Of a DNA stretch of 63,572 bases, positions 4,698 to 56,068 are shown piece by piece (the stretch's first letter is position 1; each line of letters opens with the position of its first letter). The notes beneath the pieces were generated by a model. The model ran no database searches. It was given only the letters and a program-made list of their open reading frames with translations, and was not told where the DNA came from. The translations under genes were made by a program, and so were the position numbers. The DNA is from a virus. The DNA lies in IMG/VR virus record IMGVR_UViG_3300009788_000107, positions 1-63,572 of that record; one strand, written 5' to 3'.

Positions 4698-5204
4698 TCA
4701 GATGTTGATGATCACGTAACAGACGACGTTCACCGCCGCCGCGAACGTGTTCCGGATCCGGAGGTTGGTATCGTGATCCACCTTCGGCCGCTCGCCCAGA
4801 GGCCACTGTTTGACGTACTGATTGAGGCCCATGATGTACTGCTGGTCGAAACGGCGAACCGCCGTGACGGTTCCCTCCGCTGTCGCGGTGAATCCGGTCG
4901 CCGCCGTTCCGAGTGTGACGCGAAGCTCGGTGTCGACCGCTTCCGCGTCGGGGTCGCCGGTCTTGTTGATCCCCGACGCCACATGGGCTGTGACCGTTGC
5001 GTTGATCGCGCCGGTATCGATCAGCTCGACCGCGCCGGGAGCCGCGAGCGCGGAGAGATCACCCGACCATCCCCACTCGACGACCTCGAACTTCTTCGAG
5101 GCCTGGACCTGGAGCATCGTCCGAAGGGACGTCGTTGAGTCGACGCCGGGGATCGCGATCGTCGGGTTTGCCGCGCCATTGAAAATCGTTAGCCGTTGTC
5201 CCAT
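4698..5204 (-). CDS. Putative virion structural protein
   Basis: This 168-residue protein has no enzyme motif. It has a beta-rich N-terminal half and a C-terminus with FDQQYIMGLNQYVKQWPLGE followed by a hydrophobic end. Repeated GGAGT/GGAGG motifs precede the ATG. It lies between the repeat protein and a LamG-type protein, so a fibre or tail role is inferred from position only. Confidence 0.6.
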   Translation of the reverse strand: MGQRLTIFNGAANPTIAIPGVDSTTSLRTMLQVQASKKFEVVEWGWSGDLSALAAPGAVELIDTGAINATVTAHVASGINKTGDPDAEAVDTELRVTLGTAATGFTATAEGTVTAVRRFDQQYIMGLNQYVKQWPLGERPKVDHDTNLRIRNTFAAAVNVVCYVIINI

Positions 5205-5257: not shown

Positions 5258-6472
5258 TTAGAAGTAGCTCGCCCTCTTCACCGCCTGGTTTAGTTGCGCC
5301 GACCGGATCGGAAAAGCAGAGGGCGGGGCCGGAGTGTAGTCGACCATCGCCCACACCGCCGTAATAAAAAAGTCGCGACCGGCGCCGCTCGTCACCCGGT
5401 TGCCGCCGATCTGCCAGATGTTGATATTCGCGAAAGTTTCAGAGGCAGGTGTGGCCCCGTAGGCGCGAGAAGTGGCGGGGCCGTGTATCTGGTAGGCCAC
5501 CGCGAGAGAACCATCGACCTGTATCTCGTTATCGATCGAGTTCCGTCGGTCGATCGAGTTCATGGTTTTTCCGGACCCGTTGGTGCGATTAGCTGAGAAG
5601 ATGATCGCCGCAGCGTTAATCGTGTCGGAGGCCCCGATGGTCTCGGAACCATGCCCCGCTTGAGCTGCATCGAAGTCCTCGATGTCCGCCGTCTGTCGAG
5701 TATTCGCCCCCGTATCTGACGCGTCCGCTTCGGTCGTGGCCCCATCCGGTGGAGTGTCGTCCCATAAGGGACCAACGTCGGACCCGCTGGATTTATTCCA
5801 CGCGTCGTAGGTAGGGGTTCCCCCTGTAATCGGCTGGCGCACGATGCACTGACCGGCTCCGAAAAAGACGCTGCCGGGGGCATCGCCAGAGATGACATCA
5901 TCAAAGAAGAAGTCGACGCCCTGACCGTTACGATCAGCGACCTTCCCCAAGCGACACGCCCCCAGTGATGCGCTAGCGCCAAACGCCGCCTCGATATTGG
6001 TGTGCTCAGCCGCGCCATCTATTTCAACGGACACCTGGTCGTCGCTCCCGGCCCCTGCGTTTAAGTCGAACTTCACGTCAAGGCGATACCACTGGTCGAG
6101 GCTAAGAACCGTCGTGCCGCTCGCCTGGAGCGCTCCGCCAGTCGGGAGATACACGTTGATCTGCCCTGCGCTGTCTTGGCGCAGTTCAAATAACTCGGTC
6201 CCGCTGGAGCTAAGTGCGACGAAGAACGGCTCATCGTTGGCAGATGGGCGTGCCGCGACTAGAAAATAGAACCGCCAAAACTGGACCGTACCGCCTCCCG
6301 CCGCTTGTTCCGCGAGGTCAACGAACCCGGTCCCGGTCGTCGTCGGGTTGGTGCGGAGGGAGAACGCCCCGGTGCGGAAGGTGCTGGACGAGACCTCAAC
6401 AGTCCCCGTCGAGGATTCAACCTCGCCGAGATCGCCTGTCTCGAACCCGGTCAGTATATTAACGTCTGACAT
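5258..6472 (-). CDS. LamG/concanavalin A-like phage adhesin
   Basis: This gene encodes 404 residues. Residues about 1-200 look like a laminin-G/jelly-roll fold: GFETGDLGEV, WRFYFLVAARPSANDEPFF, LSLDQWYRLDVKFDLNAG and FFFDDVISG are typical strand and turn segments of sugar-binding LamG-like domains. The C-terminal half is beta-rich and resembles the distal part of phage structural proteins. A carbohydrate-binding tail or fibre protein is likely. It is co-directional with small fibre genes on both sides. Confidence 0.7.
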   Translation of the reverse strand: MSDVNILTGFETGDLGEVESSTGTVEVSSSTFRTGAFSLRTNPTTTGTGFVDLAEQAAGGGTVQFWRFYFLVAARPSANDEPFFVALSSSGTELFELRQDSAGQINVYLPTGGALQASGTTVLSLDQWYRLDVKFDLNAGAGSDDQVSVEIDGAAEHTNIEAAFGASASLGACRLGKVADRNGQGVDFFFDDVISGDAPGSVFFGAGQCIVRQPITGGTPTYDAWNKSSGSDVGPLWDDTPPDGATTEADASDTGANTRQTADIEDFDAAQAGHGSETIGASDTINAAAIIFSANRTNGSGKTMNSIDRRNSIDNEIQVDGSLAVAYQIHGPATSRAYGATPASETFANINIWQIGGNRVTSGAGRDFFITAVWAMVDYTPAPPSAFPIRSAQLNQAVKRASYF

Positions 6473-15283: not shown

Positions 15284-15894
15284 GCGACCTTCTCCCCGAG
15301 CTTGTCTTTCATCCAATCGACGATCGTTTGAAGCTCGTCGGCTGTCGCGTCACGCTTCAGGTTGTTACACCGCCAGCATACAAGGAAGACGTTCCCCTTC
15401 ACGTACCCGACACTCGGCTCGAAGCGATCGAGGCTCGGCGAGTTGTCTTTCTTCTGTCGGTCGAACTTGTATCCAACGTCGAAGGTCACGCCGCAACATT
15501 CACAGGTTGGCTGGAGCTGGAGCCAGTCACAGATAAAGACCGCCGTGAAGATATCGAGATCGGCCGGAAGCTGTTTCTCTCTCGCTCTCGTGATTATTCC
15601 ATTACGGAGAGCGCGAGCGCGACTCATAAGAACAGGCTGATCACGGAAGTAGCGACGCGATCGCCGTCTTGACGCGTGAAGTTCGCGCTCACGACCGCTA
15701 ATTCTTCGCCTCGCGTAAGCCCGTTCACGGCTCTCTCTCCATCCGCCGTTCCAGTTCGGATTCTGCGCCATCTTCGGATGATGATTAGGAAGGAAGCGCA
15801 ACGGTCGCCCCGTGATCCATCCGCGATCTGGTCTGGTCTCAGTCGAGAGTCTAGTTCGGCCACCACAACCACACTGACAAAGGCCAGGCTTCAC
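15280..15894 (-). CDS. HNH endonuclease with N-terminal zinc motif
   Basis: This gene encodes 204 residues from GTG 15894. The N-terminus VKPGLCQCGCGGRTRLS is the short zinc motif found before many phage homing HNH proteins. The C-terminal HNH core contains CECCGVTFDVGYK, SLDRFEPSVGYVKGN and VFLVCWRCNNLKRDA. It is probably a homing or nicking endonuclease. GTGA overlaps the upstream methyltransferase-like gene. Confidence 0.75.
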   Translation of the reverse strand: MKPGLCQCGCGGRTRLSTETRPDRGWITGRPLRFLPNHHPKMAQNPNWNGGWRESRERAYARRRISGRERELHASRRRSRRYFRDQPVLMSRARALRNGIITRAREKQLPADLDIFTAVFICDWLQLQPTCECCGVTFDVGYKFDRQKKDNSPSLDRFEPSVGYVKGNVFLVCWRCNNLKRDATADELQTIVDWMKDKLGEKVA

Positions 15895-16814
15895 GCGATC
15901 TTCTCTCCGATTTGCTTCCCGTAGTACGTCCATCCGGCCCTCCGTGCTTTCCGCTTTGCTAACAGTTCAAGGTACGGTCCGGTCTCATACAGCCGCTCGA
16001 TCATCTTTCGACACTCCTCGGGGATCTCCCCGTCGTGCGGTTCGGCTCGCCAGGTCGCGACCGAGTCGAACATCGGAGTCAGTCTATCCGGAGGGAGCTT
16101 CCCACGCACACACCAGAGGACCGTCTCGTGTCGCTCGTCGAGGTAGGCGTCGGCGCGCTGGTGCAGTACACGGTCCCAGATGATCGCCCGCTTGTACTCG
16201 AACTCCCAGGCGTCGAGGAGCGCCGCGATCTCAAAGCGAAGCGACTCGGGGTGAACCAGGAAGAGCGCGGCGTTCGGTTGCATGTGCGACGCGACCGGGA
16301 TCTTCGCCAGCTCGTCGAGCGTGATCTCGCCGTAGTCTGGCGAACACACCAGGACCCGATACTTCCCGACGAGCTTCGCCTTCCCCTCGGCGACCGGCCT
16401 CCGCTTGACGTGACGAACCTCCTCTCGGATCGCGGAGACGCTCAGGTTCTCGGCCCGCGCCTTCGCGAGGACTTTCCGCTGGTGCGCCGGGTCGAGACCC
16501 GCGACCGCCTGATAGTGCGTGAAGGAGATCCCGCCCGTGAGGAACCGGCGACCCTTGGGGATCTTCTCGTGAACGCGAGCGTACTCGGTGAGCGTGGTCA
16601 GCTCGAACCCTGAGCCGTCGACGAGTTGGTACGCCCTATCGCCGAACCGCGCCTTCGCGTCGGCCCACCATTCGCCGATAAAGAACGGTGTCCGTTCCTC
16701 AAGGTCTCGAAGAAACTCCCCGACCTCGGCCGCTTGCTTCAGCGTCGGGTCGAGAACCTTCAGCCCTCTCGACTGAAGTGTGTAACCGGGGAGTTTGATC
16801 GGACGCCAGCTCAC
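15891..16814 (-). CDS. MT-A70-like protein with altered DPPW motif and ParB-like domain
   Basis: This gene encodes 307 residues (GTG start). Residues about 25-140 form a helical domain (FLRDLEERTPFFIGEWWADA, HYQAVAGLDPAHQRKVLAKA) like the ParB-like DNA-binding region of 24674-25180. Residues about 150-307 resemble MT-A70 adenine methyltransferases: ALFLVHPESLRFEIAALLDA, FEYKRAIIWDR, ETVLWCVRGK, YLELLAKRKARRAGW and YYGKQ. The catalytic DPPW expected near residue 157 reads SPDY here, so it may be inactive, or a DNA-binding relative. Confidence 0.65.
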   Translation of the reverse strand: MSWRPIKLPGYTLQSRGLKVLDPTLKQAAEVGEFLRDLEERTPFFIGEWWADAKARFGDRAYQLVDGSGFELTTLTEYARVHEKIPKGRRFLTGGISFTHYQAVAGLDPAHQRKVLAKARAENLSVSAIREEVRHVKRRPVAEGKAKLVGKYRVLVCSPDYGEITLDELAKIPVASHMQPNAALFLVHPESLRFEIAALLDAWEFEYKRAIIWDRVLHQRADAYLDERHETVLWCVRGKLPPDRLTPMFDSVATWRAEPHDGEIPEECRKMIERLYETGPYLELLAKRKARRAGWTYYGKQIGEKIA

Positions 16815-16817
16815 GAA

Positions 16818-17162
16818 CTACGCCTTCGGGACCGGCGAGCGCTTCACTTGGACATCGTGCTTCTCGGTCGTCCGCGCTGTTACCGTCATGATTGTATCGC
16901 CGACCCGACGACGGTATATCGTTTTCTTGTGCTTCCTCATCACGTCGTCGACCTGGTCCTTCGCGACCTTCTCCTTCTTCAGGTTCGCGAGCCGCTTGTC
17001 GCGCCAATTCTCGTATTCGGCGGCGGCGTCTTCGATCTCGGCGATCCCTGTCTTCTCCAGGTCGCCGGGGAGCCGTTGCTGGCGAGGAGGCCCGCCGCTC
17101 GTTGTCTTCGTTGTGGCCTTCTTCCTGTGGAGTCTTCGCTGAGGAGTTTTCTTCTTCACCAT
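16818..17162 (-). CDS. Hypothetical charged phage protein
   Basis: This 114-residue protein has a Lys/Arg-rich N-terminal tail followed by a helical domain (GIAEIEDAAAEYENWRDKRL, VDDVMRKHKKTIYRR). Proteins with this layout are common in phage early operons near recombination genes, with no known role. The ATG at 17162 follows AAAGGACGGACGC. It ends in TAG. Confidence 0.6.
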   Translation of the reverse strand: MVKKKTPQRRLHRKKATTKTTSGGPPRQQRLPGDLEKTGIAEIEDAAAEYENWRDKRLANLKKEKVAKDQVDDVMRKHKKTIYRRRVGDTIMTVTARTTEKHDVQVKRSPVPKA

Positions 17163-31828: not shown

Positions 31829-32779
31829 ATGTCAGACGTAGGCACCCCTAAAACCCTCCAAGAAGCCATTATCCACTTCGCTGACCCAGAGGTAGCGCAC
31901 CAGACGATGGTCCAGATGCGCTGGCCCCACGGCGTCGCCTGTCCGACCTGTGGCAATATCGAAGTAAAATACCGAGCAAAACAGCGCACCTGGCGCTGCC
32001 GTGAGCATAGCAAGAATCAGGACTTCTCGGTCAAGAAGGGCACGATCTTCGAGGACAGCCCGATTAGCCTCTCAAAGTGGCTCACGGCCATCTGGTTGAT
32101 AGCGAACTGCAAGAACGGTATCAGTAGCTACGAACTAGCCGGCTCCATCGGTGTTACCCAGAAGACCGGCTGGTTCATGCTTCAGCGGATTCGGAAAGCG
32201 ATGCAGGCCAAGACGTTCGACAAGCTCGGGGAAGAGGTCGAGATAGACGAGACCTACATCGGCGGCAAGGCTCGGAACATGCACAAGGGGCAGCGCAAGC
32301 TAAAGGGGACGGGCGGTGTCGGCAAGGCAGTGGTCATGGGACTCTTGCAGCGGCACGGGCCAGACAAACATTCGACCGTGCGAACGACGGTCATTGGTCG
32401 ACCTCGCAAGTATGTCCTTCAGGGCGAAGTGCTCGACACGGTCGCGCCGGGGTCACAGGTCTACACGGACGAGCTAAAGTCCTACGATGGACTCGACAGC
32501 CACTACGCCCACAAGGTCATCAACCACGCGGAGAGTTATGCGCGCGGCAACGTGCATACGAACGGCATCGAAAACTTCTGGAGCTTGCTCAAGCGGTCGC
32601 TCTCCGGCACATATGTCAGTGTTGAACCCTTCCACCTATTCCGGTATCTTGACGAGCAGGCGTATCGGTTCAACCATCGGAAGCAGACGGACGCGGAGCG
32701 GTTCGCGGGTGTGCTAAGTTCAGTCGAAGGACGGCGCGTGACTTATCAGCAACTAACGGGACGCCCAGGCGATTTGTAG
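31829..32779 (+). CDS. IS1595-family (ISXO2-like) transposase
   Basis: This gene encodes 316 residues. A zinc ribbon at residues 38-60 (CPTCG ... CREH) is followed by a helix-turn-helix region and the DDE core. D140 lies in EVEIDETYIGGK, D214 in VYTDELKSYDGL, and E248 in TNGIENFWSLLKR. The full set matches ISXO2-like transposases, with usual length (about 310). It appears intact. Codon and base use differ from the phage genes. Confidence 0.9.
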   Translation: MSDVGTPKTLQEAIIHFADPEVAHQTMVQMRWPHGVACPTCGNIEVKYRAKQRTWRCREHSKNQDFSVKKGTIFEDSPISLSKWLTAIWLIANCKNGISSYELAGSIGVTQKTGWFMLQRIRKAMQAKTFDKLGEEVEIDETYIGGKARNMHKGQRKLKGTGGVGKAVVMGLLQRHGPDKHSTVRTTVIGRPRKYVLQGEVLDTVAPGSQVYTDELKSYDGLDSHYAHKVINHAESYARGNVHTNGIENFWSLLKRSLSGTYVSVEPFHLFRYLDEQAYRFNHRKQTDAERFAGVLSSVEGRRVTYQQLTGRPGDL

Positions 32780-32822: not shown

Positions 32823-32993
32823 ATGACAGCGCGACCATCGTGGACACCACCGGCGACCGAAGGCGAGACACCGCACGCGCGGTTCACGAATCTACTGGCT
32901 CGTCTGCTCAAAGTCCCAAAGCACGAAATCGACGAACAACGAGAAAGCGAACGAGTAGCTAAGACCAGGAAAAAGAAAGCTGCATCAGACTAG
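32823..32993 (+). CDS. Small passenger protein of the IS1595 element (56 aa)
   Basis: ATG 32823 opens MTARPSWTPPATEGETPHAR followed by FTNLLARLLKVPKHEIDEQR and a Lys-rich tail. Small proteins of this make-up (a helix with LLxVPKxEI) are often encoded right after IS1595-type transposases; the function is unknown. It stops one base before the 3' end of the tRNA gene on the other strand. Confidence 0.6.
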   Translation: MTARPSWTPPATEGETPHARFTNLLARLLKVPKHEIDEQRESERVAKTRKKKAASD

Positions 32994-32994
32994 G

Positions 32995-33079
32995 TGCGGG
33001 CGGTGGGAGTCGAACCCACAAGCCCTGCCAGGCGGCGATTCTAGAAATCGCTGTGTTTACCGATTTTCACCACGCCCGC
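32995..33079 (-). tRNA. Suppressor tRNA, Leu-type body, anticodon CUA
   Basis: An 85-base class II tRNA folds cleanly. Acceptor GCGGGCG pairs with CGCCCGC (7/7). The D arm GTG/CAC encloses a loop with GG. The anticodon stem GCGAT/ATCGC is perfect, with loop TTCTAGA, giving anticodon CTA (reads UAG). The long variable arm is GCCT-GGC-AGGGC, the T arm GTGGG TTCGACT CCCAC, and the discriminator A. The TGGTGAAAATCGGTAAACAC D arm and A73 are leucine-tRNA features. This is the layout of an amber suppressor inserting leucine, as in E. coli supP. No full CCA is encoded. Confidence 0.9.
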
Positions 33080-33101: not shown

Positions 33102-34289
33102 TCACACGGTCGCCGCTTCTGATTGCAAGCCAGGCACTGAGTCTGTTTCGCTAGCGAACGGGTCTTCGTGTTCTGGACCACGCTCCGCTTCACGCACCTT
33201 TTTCCAAATCTCTTGCAGTTGCAGGCCTGGGAAATAGCGGCGACCCTTTCGCTCACCCGCAGTGACTATGAACCCATGGTCGGCTAACATCTTAAGGTCT
33301 CTAGTTGCGACGTGTTCAGGAACGCCCGCTGCGTGCCGATAGTGGGGATTCCTAATACCGTTTTGCGGGCGCATGGTCACATTGACTAAGCTAGCCACCA
33401 TCCTTTCCGGAAGTTTCGCGCTGGCAATTAATTGCTCAACCTCATCCCACACGCGCTGCATTTGGCGAGTTCGACGGAGCAATCGCATCGCTTGGCGATA
33501 GTGGGCAATCAAACAGAATCGAATCCATCGGCTTGTGTCGTTCTCAGGATGCCATGCTCCTTTTGCCGTGTCTGACAGCACAGCGTAATAGTCTGCGCGC
33601 TCGTTCCATAGATACTCTTCAATGCTGCAAAACTCTGGGCTTAGGATCTCCTCCCGAGCTAGAACCATGGTTTGGAGACATCTGGCCATTCGACCATTTC
33701 CGTCTGAGAACGGGTGAATCATTACCAAGTTAAGGTGCGCCATAGCTGCCCGTATCATCGGTGGCAGAGCAGAAGCTTCAGACAGGTCGCTGACTAATTC
33801 CGTGACTAGCTCAGGGATAAGTGCGTCGTCAGGAGCGTCGTACACCACCTTCTTTGTTGCCTCGTTTCGGACATAGATCGGCCCAGGGCGGTATCGGCCG
33901 GGATGTTTTGGTGGTCCGTAGTCGAGGGTGTATTTCATGATCATGAAGTGCAACCCTCGGATGAGGTCATCTGAATATTTGAAGTGAAGATCGTCCGAGA
34001 GCTGCAGAACGTATGTCATTGCCTCTTGATAACCACGGACGGCGGCCCAGGTTTTCCCTGGGGTCTCAATAGGTTCTTCACCATCAACGGCGGCAACAGC
34101 ATCCTCGTCGCTTACGTGATACCCCTCGATGCTATTCGACCCTTGGAGCGCTTTGGCAGCCGCAAAGCGACTAAGCAAACCGGTCCAGCGGCGCGGCTGG
34201 ACGGCATTGCGTAGCCGCTTCCTGAGATCATCAATACGTTTATGGACCTCTACCTCATGTGGGGTAAGGTCAATAGCTCTGAATAACAT
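33102..34289 (-). CDS. Fic-domain protein (putative AMP transferase)
   Basis: This 395-residue protein has the inhibitory motif SNSIEG at 51-56 (class II, N-terminal type) and the catalytic motif HPFSDGNGRMAR at 192-203, both complete. A winged-helix-like domain follows (RDLKMLADHGFIVTAGERKG). Fic enzymes transfer AMP or other nucleotide parts to target proteins; stand-alone bacterial members often act as toxins or regulators. The gene is less GC-rich than the phage genes and lies in the mobile cassette, so it is probably host-derived cargo. Confidence 0.85.
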   Translation of the reverse strand: MLFRAIDLTPHEVEVHKRIDDLRKRLRNAVQPRRWTGLLSRFAAAKALQGSNSIEGYHVSDEDAVAAVDGEEPIETPGKTWAAVRGYQEAMTYVLQLSDDLHFKYSDDLIRGLHFMIMKYTLDYGPPKHPGRYRPGPIYVRNEATKKVVYDAPDDALIPELVTELVSDLSEASALPPMIRAAMAHLNLVMIHPFSDGNGRMARCLQTMVLAREEILSPEFCSIEEYLWNERADYYAVLSDTAKGAWHPENDTSRWIRFCLIAHYRQAMRLLRRTRQMQRVWDEVEQLIASAKLPERMVASLVNVTMRPQNGIRNPHYRHAAGVPEHVATRDLKMLADHGFIVTAGERKGRRYFPGLQLQEIWKKVREAERGPEHEDPFASETDSVPGLQSEAATV

Positions 34290-34681: not shown

Positions 34682-35307
34682 CGGTCTGAAAGTGGAACGA
34701 ACCGGTCCGGCGCGTTCCCTCGTGGAGGTTGCGGGTCGACGCGGCGAGGCGTCGGAGTCGGTCGCTTCACGCCGGAGAAGGTGAACGTGATCGCGGTCGT
34801 ATAGTTTGTCTTCGTGAACGTCCGGATCTCCGTTGCGCCGCCTGGAGGCGCGAGGCCGGGAACGAACGTCGGATCCGCGAAGACGGCGTTCGGTTGCGCG
34901 CAGACAGCGACGCCGACGCCGAAGGCCATTCCGCCGCGCTTGAACGCGAACGTCGGTCCAGCGCAGAGCTTGTCTATGATATTTTCCCCAGGCTCGGCGA
35001 GGATGCTCGGTCCGACCTCAAGCCACGGGAGAACGGGGAACAAAAGCTGAAGCGATCCGACAGGTCGAACAGCGGAGTCGAGATCCTCGTCGGTCTGGAT
35101 CACGATCGCGTCTTTCCCCTCACCGAAGATCGCGAGACCGGCGCGAGGGTCGTTAAAGTTTGTCCGGAACGTGGTCCCGACTGCCCACCATCGGACCTCG
35201 CCGTTCGGGTCGACCTCGTCCTCGTCCTCCTGAGCGAAGACCGGCGCGACGGTGATCGAGAGGACGAACCAGAAGACGAGCGTCGAGATCAGCGTTCGTA
35301 CGATCAT
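34678..35307 (-). CDS. Secreted protein, possibly outer-membrane-like
   Basis: This 209-residue protein starts at ATG 35307 (MIVRTLISTLVFWFVLSITV), a Sec signal with likely cleavage after VFA (residue 25). The mature part is acidic at first, then beta-rich (VRWWAVGTTFRTNFNDPRAG, GGMAFGVGVAVCAQPNAVF) and ends Pro/Arg-rich. The strand pattern recalls a small outer-membrane beta protein. It overlaps the serine protease gene (ATGA). Confidence 0.55.
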   Translation of the reverse strand: MIVRTLISTLVFWFVLSITVAPVFAQEDEDEVDPNGEVRWWAVGTTFRTNFNDPRAGLAIFGEGKDAIVIQTDEDLDSAVRPVGSLQLLFPVLPWLEVGPSILAEPGENIIDKLCAGPTFAFKRGGMAFGVGVAVCAQPNAVFADPTFVPGLAPPGGATEIRTFTKTNYTTAITFTFSGVKRPTPTPRRVDPQPPRGNAPDRFVPLSDR

Positions 35308-36407
35308 GTGAGCCTCATTCCCTGTCCGAAGACCGCGACGACGTCGCTGATCTTGTTTGCGATCGTGATGTCCGGTCCGCCTTGCTGAGGACCGCCCGCG
35401 AAGAGAAGCGACCAGAGTTCGGATCCATCGTCCGAGACAATCCACGACCCCGAGTCGCCGCCCGCGCTTCCCGCGCTCACGCCGTCCCGGTGTGTGTAGA
35501 TGTCCTGATCCTCGAACTCGGCGACATTCGAGCCCCCGTATCCCACGTCGACGACTCCCTCGACGCCGGTACAGATCAGCGGAGTGAGAAGCGTCGTCCG
35601 GCCGAGCTTATTCGTAAGACCGCCGAGCGGCGCGACGCCGAAGTTCTGCGGCTGTCCGATCCCTTCGATCTCCGGAATGATCAAGTCTTGGTCGAGAAGT
35701 TTCTGAAGCGACGCGTCGACGTGGTTCTTCCCCCAGGGTTGTTCTAAGTACCTGGGACCGACCCGCATTCGGAACGGACAGCGCGTCGCCCTCGCGCCCG
35801 CATTCCCGAGAGCGCGAACCGAGTTCCACCAGGCTTTCGCGATCATGGTGTTTTTCTTCCCTGGGACGCTCGCGCCTCGCATCGTGATCTCGGCCCACTC
35901 CGCGAGCGTCGCGACCTGGTCGACCGGATCGATTCCCTGGTCGTGTGGTCCCGGCTGGAGATAGTGATCGCCGACCTTGACCGCTGTCGACCAGTGAGGC
36001 GCGCCGACGTGCGCGTTCGTGAGGAGGAACCAGTCGCCGGAGGGTCCCCACTTCACGAACCCGCCGTTCGTCCCCGCTGTGATGCTGTGGTGTCCCCCTG
36101 AGGACCCGCCTCGGAACGGACGCGCTCGCCCGGTCCCGGCCTGAGACTCGACGTCGACCACTCGCGGGAGAATCGGACGCGGAGCCTCGAACAGCGGGAC
36201 CTCGATTACGTCGGTCGGTCCGCCGTCGATCTCGAGCGGAAGGCGATCGTCGGCCGCGACCAGGTCGAGAGGGATCTTCTTCTTCACCGAGAAGACCGTT
36301 CCGACGTCGTCGGTTCGCTGTCCACCCTTGAACTTATACCCGCGCCAGACGCCGTTCAGGTTTCGGTTCTTCGGTTTGAAATCGTTCGCGATCGTTCGGA
36401 CGTTCAT
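35304..36407 (-). CDS. Trypsin-like serine protease
   Basis: This 367-residue protein from ATG 36407 (GAGGAGAGGCT upstream) has a chymotrypsin-fold triad: His133 in LLTNAHV, Asp231 in HVDASLQ, Ser319 in AGGDSGSW. GGFVKWGPSGDWFLLTNAHV begins the protease core after a 105-residue N-terminal part. No signal peptide is seen. Phage trypsin-like proteases are rare; lying between amidase and secreted-protein genes, it could act in lysis or virion maturation. Confidence 0.75.
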   Translation of the reverse strand: MNVRTIANDFKPKNRNLNGVWRGYKFKGGQRTDDVGTVFSVKKKIPLDLVAADDRLPLEIDGGPTDVIEVPLFEAPRPILPRVVDVESQAGTGRARPFRGGSSGGHHSITAGTNGGFVKWGPSGDWFLLTNAHVGAPHWSTAVKVGDHYLQPGPHDQGIDPVDQVATLAEWAEITMRGASVPGKKNTMIAKAWWNSVRALGNAGARATRCPFRMRVGPRYLEQPWGKNHVDASLQKLLDQDLIIPEIEGIGQPQNFGVAPLGGLTNKLGRTTLLTPLICTGVEGVVDVGYGGSNVAEFEDQDIYTHRDGVSAGSAGGDSGSWIVSDDGSELWSLLFAGGPQQGGPDITIANKISDVVAVFGQGMRLT

Positions 36408-36856
36408 AGCCTCTCCTCGACACACTCGCGAAAGTCGTCCAGATCGAACAGCTCGCCGGGACAGCTCTTCGCCGGGTTGAAATCGCGGTGTCCGACGATG
36501 CCCTCGACGTCGATCCCGAAGTAGTTACAGAGAAACGCGACGAACTTCGCGCTCGCGAGAAACACGTCGTCGGGAGGTTTGATCTCATCGTAGTTTCCGA
36601 CGATACAGACGCCGAGACTCTTCCGATTCATCCCGGCGTGTCGACAGTGCGCGCCGTTACGGCTCCAGCCGCGACCCATGAGGATCTCGGGGACCGGCTC
36701 ACCGTCGCGGCCGACGTTCGCCAGCTCGACCCCGAAGTGATAGCCGATATCGTTCCAGTGTTTCGTCTCAGTGTGGTATTTCCTGATCGCGCCCCAGGAC
36801 ACGGTTCCCGAGTCTTTCGTTAGACTGTGATGAATCATCACATGCTCGGGTGTCAT
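36404..36856 (-). CDS. Endolysin: N-acetylmuramoyl-L-alanine amidase (PGRP/amidase_2)
   Basis: This 150-residue protein has VMIHHSLTKDSGTVSW, DIGYHFGVE, KSLGVCIVGNYD and IVGHRDFNPAKSCPG. Zinc ligands are His in IHH, His122 in GHRD and Cys132 in SCPG. It cleaves the amide bond of peptidoglycan and is a T7-lysozyme-sized single-domain endolysin with no signal peptide, so it needs a holin. ATG 36856 overlaps the previous stop (TAATG). Confidence 0.85.
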   Translation of the reverse strand: MTPEHVMIHHSLTKDSGTVSWGAIRKYHTETKHWNDIGYHFGVELANVGRDGEPVPEILMGRGWSRNGAHCRHAGMNRKSLGVCIVGNYDEIKPPDDVFLASAKFVAFLCNYFGIDVEGIVGHRDFNPAKSCPGELFDLDDFRECVEERL

Positions 36857-46543: not shown

Positions 46544-46990
46544 TCATTTCCTCGCCGCGATCAAGACTTTGTCGCCTTGCTTCACTTCGGTTCCTGTTTG
46601 GTGCGCGAACTGGAAGATCGCGTTCTTCATGCTGTTGATCCCCTGAACGCCTGGCGGGGTCTCGCCTTTGGCGCTGGCTCGCGCCCCGCGTCGCGACGAC
46701 CCGCCGAACAGCGTCCCAGGGTCGAGATACTCCTCCGGCCTGGGAAGTTTTTTGAGTCGCTGCAGCTGCGCGATATAGAACGACAGCGCTCGATCCCGAA
46801 CCCATTCATCCCGCCGCCTTTCGCGGATCACTCTGAACTCGCGAAACAGCTCGCGAGGACTTAGCGACCAGAACTCTTCGCGGTCGATCCCGAACCGGCG
46901 CGAGTAGCGATAGAGCCTTTTCCAGTCCCACCAGCTCGCCGGACCTTCTTCGCCTTTGTCTTCTTCGCCGACCGCCGTCGAGGGTCCTGT
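46544..46990 (-). CDS. Tail assembly chaperone GT extension (-1 frame)
   Basis: A -1 frame relative to the chaperone G gene is open from 46990 to 46544. It reads GEEGPASWWDWKRLYRYSRR and FGIDREEFWSLSPRELFREF before the part that could also begin at GTG 46831. The W-x2-L-Y-R and FGIxxEEFWxLSPREL segments are typical of the T part of lambda-like GT chaperones. A -1 ribosomal frameshift near 46945-46985 would make the fusion; no classical slippery heptamer is obvious. Confidence 0.65.
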   Translation of the reverse strand, partial: TGPSTAVGEEDKGEEGPASWWDWKRLYRYSRRFGIDREEFWSLSPRELFREFRVIRERRRDEWVRDRALSFYIAQLQRLKKLPRPEEYLDPGTLFGGSSRRGARASAKGETPPGVQGINSMKNAIFQFAHQTGTEVKQGDKVLIAARK

Positions 46991-48913: not shown

Positions 48914-49294
48914 CTACGCCTCGATCCTTCCCTTCGCGATCGTCTCGATCTCGATCCCGTGTCTCATGCTCCACATTTCGATCGGCGCTACTCGAACGAT
49001 GTCATAGATCCTTGACCGATGAACGATCCGGAACTCCTTCTGGACGTCAATCAGATCGGGGTCGAGATCCTCTCGGTACCACGTTTGCCACATTGTATCG
49101 AAGGGCGATGAGAGCTGGCCCGCCGAAAACCGTTCGTCGCCGCGAAGATCGACCTTCCGCGCCATCACGTCGAACGAGTCGACCCAGACGTCGGTAGGGA
49201 ACCCGCCGCTCCCCGTGACGCTCGTCTGTGTTTGAAACGTGATCACCCTGTTGAGTTCTCCAGGGTTGATTGGTTTCAGTCTCATCTTCGCCAT
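48914..49294 (-). CDS. Head-tail adaptor protein
   Basis: This 126-residue protein matches phage head-tail joining proteins: INPGELNRVITFQTQTSVTG, GGFPTDVW, ARKVDLRGDERF and FRIVHRSRIYDIVRVAP. It follows the gp6-like connector and ends in TAG. Confidence 0.8.
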   Translation of the reverse strand: MAKMRLKPINPGELNRVITFQTQTSVTGSGGFPTDVWVDSFDVMARKVDLRGDERFSAGQLSSPFDTMWQTWYREDLDPDLIDVQKEFRIVHRSRIYDIVRVAPIEMWSMRHGIEIETIAKGRIEA

Positions 49295-49307: not shown

Positions 49308-49934
49308 CTAGTGGAGCTTGTACCTCCACCAGAGATTCTCCGCGCTGATCACGGCCGGGTGTTGGAAGACGTCCTGAAGCGATTGCTTCCGCTGAACGTA
49401 TAGCTCGCCGATAATCAGTTTCATTCCGTGTTTGATCGTAGCCGGGACCGCCTTCCCGTTGTCGCCGTACCCACACTTGAACGTGACCTTCACAGCGTCC
49501 TGTTCGCCGCGAACGGTCGGCCAGGTGAGACCCCAGGCCGGACGGATTCGCGCTCGTGGCGGTCGGATCGCGTTGCTATTGGCGGTCGTCTGGCCGGAGA
49601 CCTTGTACTCTGCCGCCGCCCAGGTGACGAGCGCCCCGGTCGTGTCGATATATTCGATCGTCGTGATCGACTGGAGCGGCGGAAGCGGGACGGTGATCTG
49701 GTGTCGAGGGAAGCGGTCGAGGAACAGTACCCAGTCCTGAGTAATCAGCGGCCGACGAAGGAACCCCTCCGCGTGTTCTCGCGCCACTTTGATCAGGCCT
49801 TGAAAGTACGCGTGTTCGTCGGCGTCCGAGATCAGGCGAACGTGTTCGTCGCGAGCCTCGTCGACCTCCATTGGCTCGGCGGTCGGTTCGGTGAGTTGCT
49901 CGAGTCTCCAGGGCACGTCCCCGTTTATTCTCAT
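49308..49934 (-). CDS. gp6-like head-tail connector
   Basis: This 208-residue protein has the gp6 connector pattern: LISDADEHAYFQGLIKVARE, HAEGFLRRPLITQDWVLFLD, VPLPPLQSITTIEYIDTTGA and ATIKHGMKLIIGELY. It caps the portal below. It lies after the glycan island rather than directly after the capsid gene. It ends in TAG. Confidence 0.85.
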   Translation of the reverse strand: MRINGDVPWRLEQLTEPTAEPMEVDEARDEHVRLISDADEHAYFQGLIKVAREHAEGFLRRPLITQDWVLFLDRFPRHQITVPLPPLQSITTIEYIDTTGALVTWAAAEYKVSGQTTANSNAIRPPRARIRPAWGLTWPTVRGEQDAVKVTFKCGYGDNGKAVPATIKHGMKLIIGELYVQRKQSLQDVFQHPAVISAENLWWRYKLH

Positions 49935-54137: not shown

Positions 54138-54593
54138 CTAGGTGACGACTTCAGCAACGTCCGAGCTATCGGCTCCAGGCTGATAGCGCCGGTCGAACTG
54201 TTGCACGAGTGCGGAGACGTCCGACGTCGCCACAGCGACGGTAACCGTCAGCCGGAAGAAGTCGAACCCACCCTCGACGTCCAGCTCCTCGGTCGCCAGG
54301 TTGATCTGTGCGACCTTGCTCGCGTCGTTCGGTGAGTCGATATCCGTAAGCTGCGTGATCGCCTTCCCTGTGATGTCCTTCGCTCCAGCGCCGCCCGAGG
54401 TCGTCGCCTGTTCCAGCTTCGCGTCGATCGTCGCGTCCGTTCCGAGGACGCCGGTCTGAACCGTCGCGAGGTAGTTGTGAGCGTTCGCCGCGTTGATCCA
54501 CGCGGACGAAACTGCTCCCGCTGCGTGTGCGTCCGGATCGATCTTGCCAACGTACTTGGCTCGATCCGACGGTTTCACATTCACGTCGCCCAT
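54138..54593 (-). CDS. Probable capsid decoration/head protein
   Basis: This 151-residue protein follows the capsid gene. RAKYVGKIDPDAHAAGAVSS, AWINAANAHNYLATVQTGV, DAKLEQATTSGGAGAKDITG and EELDVEGGFDFFRLTVTVAV match a widespread phage head-associated protein. A decoration role is inferred. GAAGGAG precedes the ATG. It ends in TAG. Confidence 0.65.
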   Translation of the reverse strand: MGDVNVKPSDRAKYVGKIDPDAHAAGAVSSAWINAANAHNYLATVQTGVLGTDATIDAKLEQATTSGGAGAKDITGKAITQLTDIDSPNDASKVAQINLATEELDVEGGFDFFRLTVTVAVATSDVSALVQQFDRRYQPGADSSDVAEVVT

Positions 54594-54652: not shown

Positions 54653-56068
54653 CTAGGCGCGCTCAGCGAGAAGAACCATGTGGGACTTGTTGTCCCCCTT
54701 GTTTGCGACGATCGGCGTCGACAGGAACGGCTGTCCGGCCAGACGGAAGATCCAGCGGAATGCCTGGATGTTGTAATCGAAGAACAGATGAATCGACGTC
54801 GCGAACTGAAGGCCCGCGCTCGGTCCGCCCTTCACAGCCGCGTAGTATCCCGCGCTGTTGATGAGCTGGAGATCGCCGAGGTCGCCCAACGTCTCCGCGT
54901 GCTCCGACCACATGATCGGATAGCCGAGCAGCATCCCGCCTGGCGTGACGGTGAGGCCGGACGTCGGCGACGTCCAGATCGGCTGATCTCCGATCGTCAT
55001 GACAGCGATCTGGGGGAGCGTGTTCCGATTCGCGAGCCAGAAGATCCGAGCGGTGTCGGATCCATCCGTGTGGAGCGCCCCGAACATCTTGAGGACGTTC
55101 GCCGCTTCGATGGTGTCCGCCGCTTGGCTCCCCTCCTTCGCGATGGTGATGGTCCCCGGCGCATTGAACCAACCGAGCGGCTGTCCCGCGCCGGTCCCGG
55201 TGACGATCGCCTCGGACGCCTTGAACCGAATCGCCGCGCCTGCCTGTTGCGTCAGGCGGTTGTTCAGTCGCGGCGCGTCGGCGAGGAGTTCCTCGGTCGC
55301 CAGGACGAACGCGTACAGCTCGTGAAGGCGAACGGTCTCGCGCTTCGTCTCGAGCTGGCTTGGCGTCATCTGTGCCGACTCGGCTCTCCAGCGAGCCTGA
55401 ACGCCAGTCGCGCCCCAGGGCGTGTTCTCGTCCGCCTCGACCTCGACGGAGTTGGAGTTCGTCGGCTCCGGCTGAACCGCCTCCAACATTCCTCCCTCAG
55501 CGAAGATGAGCTGAAAGATTGTGTTCCGGATCTCAGGCGGAACCATGTACCCCTCGGTCGTGTGGCTCTCCTGATGGAAGTTCGTCGGCGCATCGACCCG
55601 CCGCTGATTCCCCTCCAGGTCGCCGTACGCGACAGGTCCGACCGGCTGAGGTCCGGTCCCCGACCACATACGGGTCAGGCGCTCGTCGAGACGCTGGCCC
55701 GCGTTCGGCCGACTGACGTCCCGAACGGCGACCGCGAAGTCCGCCATGTCCGTAAACCCACACATGGGATCATCTTCGCCCCGGTCATGAACCGAGATCA
55801 CTCCGGCCGATCGGTTCGCGGCAGCAGCGGCGGCGGCGTCCGGTCCCGGTCCCCCTGCGCCCGACGCGGCGAGGTCGCGGTCACGCTGAGCGGACCGCTC
55901 GAGGATTGCGATCTCGGATTGGATCTGAGAGATCGCCGCTTCGAGAACTTTGATCTCCTCGGTCTCTTCGGCGGTCATTAGCCGATCTTCGGTTTCGAGC
56001 GCGGCCGTGATTTCTCGGATTCGGCCTTGCTTCTCTCGAAGCTGGTTCTGAAGTCTTTTCAGTCTCAT
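54653..56068 (-). CDS. Major capsid protein (HK97 fold)
   Basis: ATG 56068 follows GGGAGGACAGAGGA. The 471-residue product has a coiled-coil delta domain (residues 1-about 100; LRLKRLQNQLREKQGRIREI-like) followed by the capsid core: VPPEIRNTIFQLIFAEGGML, WGATGVQARWRAESAQMTP, LYAFVLATEELLADAPRLNN and LLGYPIMWSEHAETLGDLGD. The S49 protease upstream should remove the delta domain. The stop is TAG, with another TAG three codons later and a TGA 23 codons on, so amber suppression could extend it. Confidence 0.9.
   Translation of the reverse strand: MRLKRLQNQLREKQGRIREITAALETEDRLMTAEETEEIKVLEAAISQIQSEIAILERSAQRDRDLAASGAGGPGPDAAAAAAANRSAGVISVHDRGEDDPMCGFTDMADFAVAVRDVSRPNAGQRLDERLTRMWSGTGPQPVGPVAYGDLEGNQRRVDAPTNFHQESHTTEGYMVPPEIRNTIFQLIFAEGGMLEAVQPEPTNSNSVEVEADENTPWGATGVQARWRAESAQMTPSQLETKRETVRLHELYAFVLATEELLADAPRLNNRLTQQAGAAIRFKASEAIVTGTGAGQPLGWFNAPGTITIAKEGSQAADTIEAANVLKMFGALHTDGSDTARIFWLANRNTLPQIAVMTIGDQPIWTSPTSGLTVTPGGMLLGYPIMWSEHAETLGDLGDLQLINSAGYYAAVKGGPSAGLQFATSIHLFFDYNIQAFRWIFRLAGQPFLSTPIVANKGDNKSHMVLLAERA

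What the first reader, a model, noticed from the sequence alone, without database searches (positions are those of the whole stretch)
32995..33079. Natural amber-suppressor tRNA-Leu on a mobile cassette
The sequence shows a complete 85-base class II tRNA with anticodon stem GCGAT/ATCGC and loop TTCTAGA, so anticodon CUA. Known biology: E. coli supP is a leucine tRNA whose CAA anticodon became CUA, and several phage groups carry suppressor tRNAs linked to stop-codon recoding. Here open frames are intact under the standard code, so global recoding is unlikely. Several head genes nevertheless end in TAG (capsid 54653, decoration 54138, connector 49308, adaptor 48914), so partial read-through late in infection is possible.
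Basis: partly seen in the sequence, partly recalled or inferred. Interest (0 to 1): 0.85.

Follow-up and report, generated by a model that had tools for sequence, protein, structure and literature searches.

The report
Amber-suppressor leucine tRNA in standard-code phage
A bacterial virus that uses the normal genetic code carries one well-formed leucine transfer RNA whose anticodon reads a stop signal, beside a candidate defence gene and a transposase; its capsid gene shows no sign of needing it, and similar lone tRNAs turn up in unrelated bacteria and viruses.

Summary
Window 32993-33079 (minus strand) is a complete class II tRNA gene with anticodon CUA (ARAGORN; Rfam 52 bits). D-arm, A73 and A15-U48 are those of bacterial tRNA-Leu, and the long variable arm excludes tRNA-Pyl. 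The read-through reading is not supported. All 15 capsid relatives end at the same residue with TAA, TGA or TAG; TAG usage matches that of relatives without the tRNA; and no gene shows in-frame TAG, whereas four phage loci with Leu-type CUA tRNAs show many (TAG opposite Leu at 14 of 18 comparable sites). The IS1595-type transposase next door does not carry the tRNA elsewhere (0 of 43 related viral loci). The tRNA lies 22 bp behind a SoFic-type gene in a lower-GC accessory stretch. Nine lone Leu-type CUA tRNAs from non-recoded loci (phages, Acidobacteria, Planctomycetes, others) share a variable-arm feature (YU instead of GU before the T-stem) seen in 1 of 25 ordinary tRNA-Leu of the same genomes; several lie beside defence systems. 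Best reading: an accessory amber suppressor carried without recoding. Charging, expression and any target are untested.

The parts
32993..33079 (-). tRNA-Leu-type gene, anticodon CUA (amber suppressor); mature part 32995-33079
33042..33044 (-). anticodon CTA in loop TTCTAGA (33040-33046)
33102..34289 (-). Fic/DOC protein, 395 aa, motif HPFSDGNGR, SoFic-type defence model; ends 22 bp before the 5' end of the tRNA, same strand
   Evidence: PF02661 3.9e-15; SoFic 4.9e-47
31829..32779 (+). IS1595-type (ISXO2-like) transposase, 316 aa, opposite strand to the tRNA
   Evidence: PF12762 2.3e-40
32823..32993 (+). 56-aa ORF that recurs downstream of IS1595 transposases in several other viral loci; its stop codon meets the 3' end of the tRNA
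54653..54655 (-). capsid TAG stop: ordinary terminus (homologues end here with TGA, TAA or TAG)
54138..54140 (-). TAG stop of the gene after the capsid: TGA follows one codon later
49308..49310 (-). head-tail adaptor TAG stop: downstream frame non-coding
48914..48916 (-). head-closure (Hc1-like) TAG stop: second TAG after five codons
16818..16820 (-). only TAG on the coding strand with coding-like sequence in frame on both sides (114-aa ORF, then the MT-A70 gene 15891-16814); most likely two adjacent genes

Best explanation
The element is a structurally intact, probably leucine-charged amber-suppressor tRNA gene carried as accessory cargo (with a Fic gene) by a tailed bacterial phage that uses the standard code. 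If expressed, it would be charged by the host leucyl-tRNA synthetase (which ignores the anticodon), receive CCA from the host enzyme, and compete with release factor 1 at UAG, giving partial, untargeted read-through of host and phage genes. It is not used to decode the phage's own genes in any way that the sequence shows. Shown: sequence, fold, tRNA-Leu features, absence of recoding, recurrence of similar lone tRNAs. Inferred: charging, expression, read-through. The rivals below on what the cargo is for (conflict role, neutral hitch-hiker, early step to recoding) are finer readings that partly overlap with this statement.
For: tRNA and anticodon. tRNA-Leu type: the annotated phage relatives that match along most of its length are tRNA-Leu; Leu-like D-arm, A73 and A15-U48. 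No recoding: coding density 0.88 to 0.92 with TAG as sense, against 0.80 to 1.00 and 0.76 to 0.93 in recoded loci L078 and L081; stops flanked by coding on both sides 2 TAG, 2 TAA, 2 TGA in 63.6 kb, against 4 to 8 TAG in 8-12 kb of four recoded loci. Capsid stop ordinary. TAG share 16/65 in the window, 48/191 in relatives. Accessory stretch: Fic GC 0.535 against about 0.62 around it, weak coding score of Fic. Not IS cargo. That a Leu-type CUA tRNA can serve as a leucine suppressor in phages: TAG opposite Leu at 14 of 18 sites in recoded loci L019, L078, L081, L087.
Against: No expression data; the promoter scan near the tRNA is no better than chance. The variable arm differs from ordinary tRNA-Leu (YU instead of GU before the T-stem), so charging efficiency or even identity could differ. 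The host is unknown.
Confidence: 0.72

Rival explanations
1. Programmed read-through of TAG in phage late genes: the tRNA extends capsid or connector proteins late in infection.
For: Four head genes end in TAG; the anticodon fits.
Against: 15 capsid homologues end at the same residue with mixed stops; extensions short or non-coding; TAG use not different from relatives.
Confidence: 0.05
2. Translational weapon or defence part: the suppressor acts against the host or rival phages by reading through their UAG stops, and travels with defence genes (SoFic here).
For: Fic directly upstream on the same strand; related lone CUA tRNAs beside SoFic and a methylase (L072), type I-G cas genes (L073), IetAS (L074), and with SoFic about 4 kb away (L076); 3/8 loci against about 1/26 ordinary tRNA-Leu loci with a named defence system among the nearest genes, p 0.03. 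Read-through of host genes as anti-defence was proposed for crAss-like phages (PMC7886860).
Against: Small sample, association noticed after the fact; counting an estimated six control loci for all generic PADLOC hits removes the signal (p 0.65). Defence islands often lie at tRNA genes. No Fic-tRNA pair in other viral contigs.
Confidence: 0.17
3. Neutral hitch-hiker: a redundant tRNA-Leu copy left by an element whose anticodon drifted (CAA to CUA is one step), poorly or not expressed.
For: Accessory location; island-borne tRNA copies are under relaxed constraint; no promoter found.
Against: Stems are intact here and covary across ten related tRNAs; nine lone CUA tRNAs from several phyla share the same variable-arm deviation and six of them group together (81/91), which independent drift does not predict.
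Confidence: 0.22
4. Incipient code change: the suppressor precedes TAG accumulation ('suppressor pre-emergence', described for crAss-like phages).
For: Suppressor present without recoding; Yutin et al. describe this state (PMC7886860).
Against: No excess of in-frame TAG yet; the same state recurs in non-recoded chromosomes, so it need not lead to recoding.
Confidence: 0.12

Closest known systems
supP-type leucine amber suppressor of E. coli
   Same: class II tRNA-Leu with CUA anticodon, A73
   Different: natural phage-borne gene, variable arm ends YU instead of GU, CCA not encoded
Suppressor tRNA without recoding in crAss-like phages ('suppressor pre-emergence', PMC7886860)
   Same: phage-borne stop-reading tRNA, no recoding detected
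   Different: unrelated phage; tRNA-Leu type; isolated gene beside Fic and a transposase, not in a tRNA block
TAG-recoded phages with Sup-CTA tRNA (code 15, PMC11210395, PMC10607447)
   Same: CUA tRNA in a phage genome
   Different: no in-frame TAG in genes; predicted amino acid Leu, not Gln
Allo-tRNAs (Mukai et al. 2017, reviewed in PMC7609411)
   Same: odd-anticodon long-variable-arm tRNAs in Acidobacteria and other bacteria, one reported overlapping a transposon-related gene
   Different: allo-tRNAs have 8/4 or 9/3 acceptor branches and mostly Ser identity; this one is 7/5 with tRNA-Leu features
SoFic (PADLOC PDLC03963)
   Same: neighbouring Fic gene matches the model and has the Fic motif
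   Different: carried by a phage; a tRNA partner is not part of the described system

Membership tests
Amber-suppressor tRNA-Leu | anticodon CUA in an intact cloverleaf | tested here: met
Amber-suppressor tRNA-Leu | tRNA-Leu features: class II arm, Leu-type D-arm, A15-U48, A73 | tested here: met
   variable-arm end deviates (YU for GU)
Amber-suppressor tRNA-Leu | charging with leucine and suppression in vivo | not testable with these tools
   needs an experiment
TAG-recoded phage | conserved genes interrupted by in-frame TAG | tested here: not met
   positive controls L019, L027, L078, L081
TAG-recoded phage | coding density clearly higher with TAG as sense | tested here: not met
   0.88 to 0.92
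Programmed capsid read-through | conserved coding extension behind the stop | tested here: not met
tRNA-Pyl | very small variable loop and PylRS partner (own knowledge) | tested here: not met
   15-nt variable arm; a PylRS gene was not searched for
Allo-tRNA | 8/4 or 9/3 acceptor branch | tested here: not met
   7/5; definition
IS1595 passenger gene | tRNA present with related transposases | tested here: not met
   0 of 43 other viral IS1595 loci carry a CUA tRNA
Lone Leu-type CUA tRNAs of non-recoded loci (grouping made here) | YU instead of GU before the T-stem | tested here: met
   9/9 against 1/25 ordinary tRNA-Leu, p 2e-7
Lone Leu-type CUA tRNAs of non-recoded loci (grouping made here) | common descent | tested here: inconclusive
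   six of nine cluster (81/91), one trio strongly (98/93); the window tRNA is placed elsewhere with weak support
SoFic defence gene (neighbour) | profile match and Fic motif | tested here: met

The most novel reading that the evidence does not exclude
A horizontally moving family of lone tRNA-Leu(CUA) genes with an altered variable arm travels with phages and defence islands across phyla, and acts as a component of phage-host or phage-phage conflict by forcing read-through of UAG stops.
Probability: 0.13. Interest if true: 0.85.

Novelty: new variant of a known kind. Interest (0 to 1): 0.45.

Why it matters
Stop-reading tRNAs in phages are usually explained by recoding of the phage's own genes. 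Here, and in at least eight other non-recoded phage and bacterial loci, a CUA tRNA of leucine type is kept without recoding. If such tRNAs are active, they either cost the cell mis-terminated proteins or do something useful that is not yet described; the shared variable-arm feature and the defence neighbours make both possibilities directly testable. The comparison also turned up phages whose TAG positions align with leucine rather than the usual glutamine.

Tried and rejected
Capsid and connector read-through: rejected. tRNA as passenger of the IS1595 element: rejected. tRNA-Pyl (ARAGORN label): rejected on the variable arm. The TAG at 16818 as a split methyltransferase gene: unlikely, because the upstream ORF looks like a complete small protein and the same same-frame adjacency occurs with TGA at 46544 and 52670; no homologue was found to settle it. 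E. coli plasmid 'tRNA-OTHER' hits: only the T-arm region matches, a short tRNA-like sequence beside degraded transposases. Relatives of the Fic gene or of the gene at 35304-36425 in viral contigs, to find an empty site: only the near-identical record. Host assignment: not achieved; terminase matches are 33-38% identical over many hosts. The Borges et al. 2022 paper is not held.

Full report
What is there. The window is an IMG/VR virus record of 63,572 bases. It encodes terminase, portal, head maturation protease, HK97-type capsid, head-tail connectors and an N-acetylmuramoyl-L-alanine amidase, so it is a tailed phage, most likely of a bacterium. ARAGORN finds one tRNA, 32993-33079 on the minus strand, anticodon CTA, and Rfam agrees (52.2 bits). 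The label tRNA-Pyl comes from the anticodon only. The genomic 3' end reads ACCT, so the CCA end must be completed by the host enzyme. A second record, IMGVR_UViG_3300024265_000158, covers the window from about 63572 down to 31752 with five single-base differences in the stretches compared, none in the tRNA; it stops just left of the transposase gene.

Which tRNA. The annotated phage relatives that match along most of its length are tRNA-Leu. The D-arm (TGGTGAAAATCGGTAAACAC) has the layout of bacterial tRNA-Leu, position 15 is A and 48 is U, and the discriminator base is A. From established knowledge, leucyl-tRNA synthetase of bacteria does not read the anticodon, so a CUA anticodon does not prevent charging. 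Leucine is therefore the best prediction; it is not shown.

Is it used for recoding or read-through? Gene calling with a codon model gave 95 genes, 17 ending in TAG. Treating TAG as sense raises coding density only from 0.88 to 0.92. Stops with coding-like sequence in frame on both sides are 2 TAG, 2 TAA and 2 TGA in the whole window, while the same test finds 4 to 8 such TAGs in 8-12 kb of recoded loci L019, L027, L078 and L081, which also carry Leu-type CUA tRNAs. Fifteen capsid homologues (41-53% identical) all end at the residue where the window capsid ends, give or take one, with TGA in five, TAA in four and TAG in six. None of those loci contains a tRNA, though most are fragments. Read-through of the four head-gene TAGs would add 24, 2, 87 and 38 codons up to the first non-TAG stop, with no coding character in the stretches scored. 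TAG makes up 16 of 65 stops of long ORFs in the window and 48 of 191 in the relatives, so the tRNA has left no mark on stop usage. The single TAG worth keeping in mind is at 16818, where a 114-aa ORF is followed in frame by an MT-A70 methyltransferase gene; the same adjacency occurs twice with TGA, so it is probably chance.

Surroundings. On the same strand, 22 bp upstream of the tRNA, ends a 395-aa Fic protein with the motif HPFSDGNGR that matches the SoFic defence model (4.9e-47). Its GC content is 0.535 against about 0.62 around it, which points to later acquisition. On the other side, on the opposite strand, lie an IS1595-type transposase and a 56-aa ORF that recurs downstream of IS1595 transposases in other viral loci. 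The stop codon of that ORF meets the end of the tRNA. Among 43 other viral loci with related transposases none has a CUA tRNA, so the tRNA is a neighbour of the element and not its cargo.

Relatives of the tRNA. Pattern scans for tRNA-Leu-like genes with CUA found few in 2.9 million viral contigs and about ten in a collection of 84,980 species genomes. They fall into two kinds. One kind sits in TAG-recoded phage sequence (L019, L027, L078, L081; L087 also has in-frame TAGs). In proteins shared among L019, L078, L081 and L087, the residue opposite an in-frame TAG is leucine at 14 of 18 sites and glutamine at two (some sites are homologous between L019 and L078, so fewer are independent). This is a positive control: a Leu-type CUA tRNA goes with TAG read as leucine. 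The other kind is lone and sits in sequence without recoding: the window, phage contig L021, and MAG loci L072, L073, L074, L075, L076, L077 and L082. All nine have a pyrimidine-U pair of bases before the T-stem, where 24 of 25 ordinary tRNA-Leu genes of the same MAGs and all six tRNAs of the recoded or viral group have GU (p 2e-7 against the ordinary ones). The tenth, L079, has GU. The stems pair in 98% of cells with covariation. A tree of the 57-column core, anticodon masked, groups six of the nine across phyla (81/91), with L021, L072 and L082 together at 98/93, apart from the tRNA-Leu genes of their own genomes; the window tRNA is placed elsewhere with weak support. Short sequences limit this.

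Neighbours of the lone tRNAs. L072 has SoFic on one side and an IS1595 transposase on the other, the same trio as the window though only 24% and 36% identical. L074 has IetA and IetS starting 30 bp away, L073 type I-G cas genes, L076 SoFic about 4 kb away, L079 a PemK-like toxin and a candidate defence gene, and L075 and L082 IS1-like transposases. In a control with the nearest two ORFs on each side, three of eight CUA loci hold a named defence system. For the 26 ordinary tRNA-Leu loci I counted one (a methyltransferase) as a likely true defence gene; this gives p 0.03, but estimating six control loci for all generic profile hits gives p 0.65. The PADLOC output for the control set does not say which loci matched, so both control counts are my reading of it. 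The association was noticed after looking, the sample is small, and MAG binning can be wrong. It is a lead, not a result.

Mechanism. The most likely account is an accessory, intact suppressor tRNA that, when expressed, is charged with leucine by the host and causes partial read-through of UAG without a dedicated phage target. Whether this is tolerated baggage, a weapon or an early step to recoding is open. Yutin et al. (PMC7886860) describe suppressor tRNAs in crAss-like phages without recoding and propose both an incipient code change and impairment of host proteins; the present case fits the observed state but in another phage group, with tRNA-Leu type and this neighbourhood.

Limits. Host unknown, no expression data, no charging data. 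The relatives were found with D-arm and T-loop patterns, so other forms would be missed; the variable-arm position itself was not part of the patterns.

Noticed in passing
L019 (8377-8461 tRNA), L078, L081, L087: TAG-recoded phage loci (IMG/VR contigs 3300028833_005988 and 3300029705_000100, and Clostridia MAG contigs) with Leu-type CUA tRNA; residues opposite in-frame TAG are Leu at 14 of 18 sites, Gln at 2: a TAG-to-leucine phage code instead of the usual glutamine. A paper search found no report of this in phages.
   Followed up: partly
L074:2180-6017: Lone CUA tRNA 30 bp from an IetA/IetS defence pair in a Planctomycetota MAG.
   Followed up: partly
L073:1-3510: Lone CUA tRNA between repeat-like sequence that looks like a CRISPR array and type I-G cas genes in a Hyphomicrobiales MAG.
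   Followed up: partly
L065:7843-7927: Leu-like class II tRNA with a serine anticodon (AGA) and a deviating variable-arm end before the T-stem, on a phage contig with an IS1595 gene: another odd-anticodon tRNA of similar make.
   Followed up: no
window 32823-32993: Small ORF (about 56 aa, motif KVPKHEIDEQ) found next to IS1595 transposases in about nine viral loci, in either orientation: probable passenger or partner of these elements.
   Followed up: partly
window 15891-17162: Small ORF and MT-A70 methyltransferase gene in the same frame, separated by TAG and one codon.
   Followed up: partly
L023 (about 4866-4893) and L025 (about 5315-5345): Leu-type CUA D-arm/anticodon halves without a normal T-arm in phage contigs; possibly split, intron-bearing or decayed tRNAs.
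   Followed up: no
L097:4954-5026: E. coli plasmid 'tRNA-OTHER' gene (ARAGORN reads a 4-base anticodon), present in about 22 plasmids among degraded transposases.
   Followed up: no
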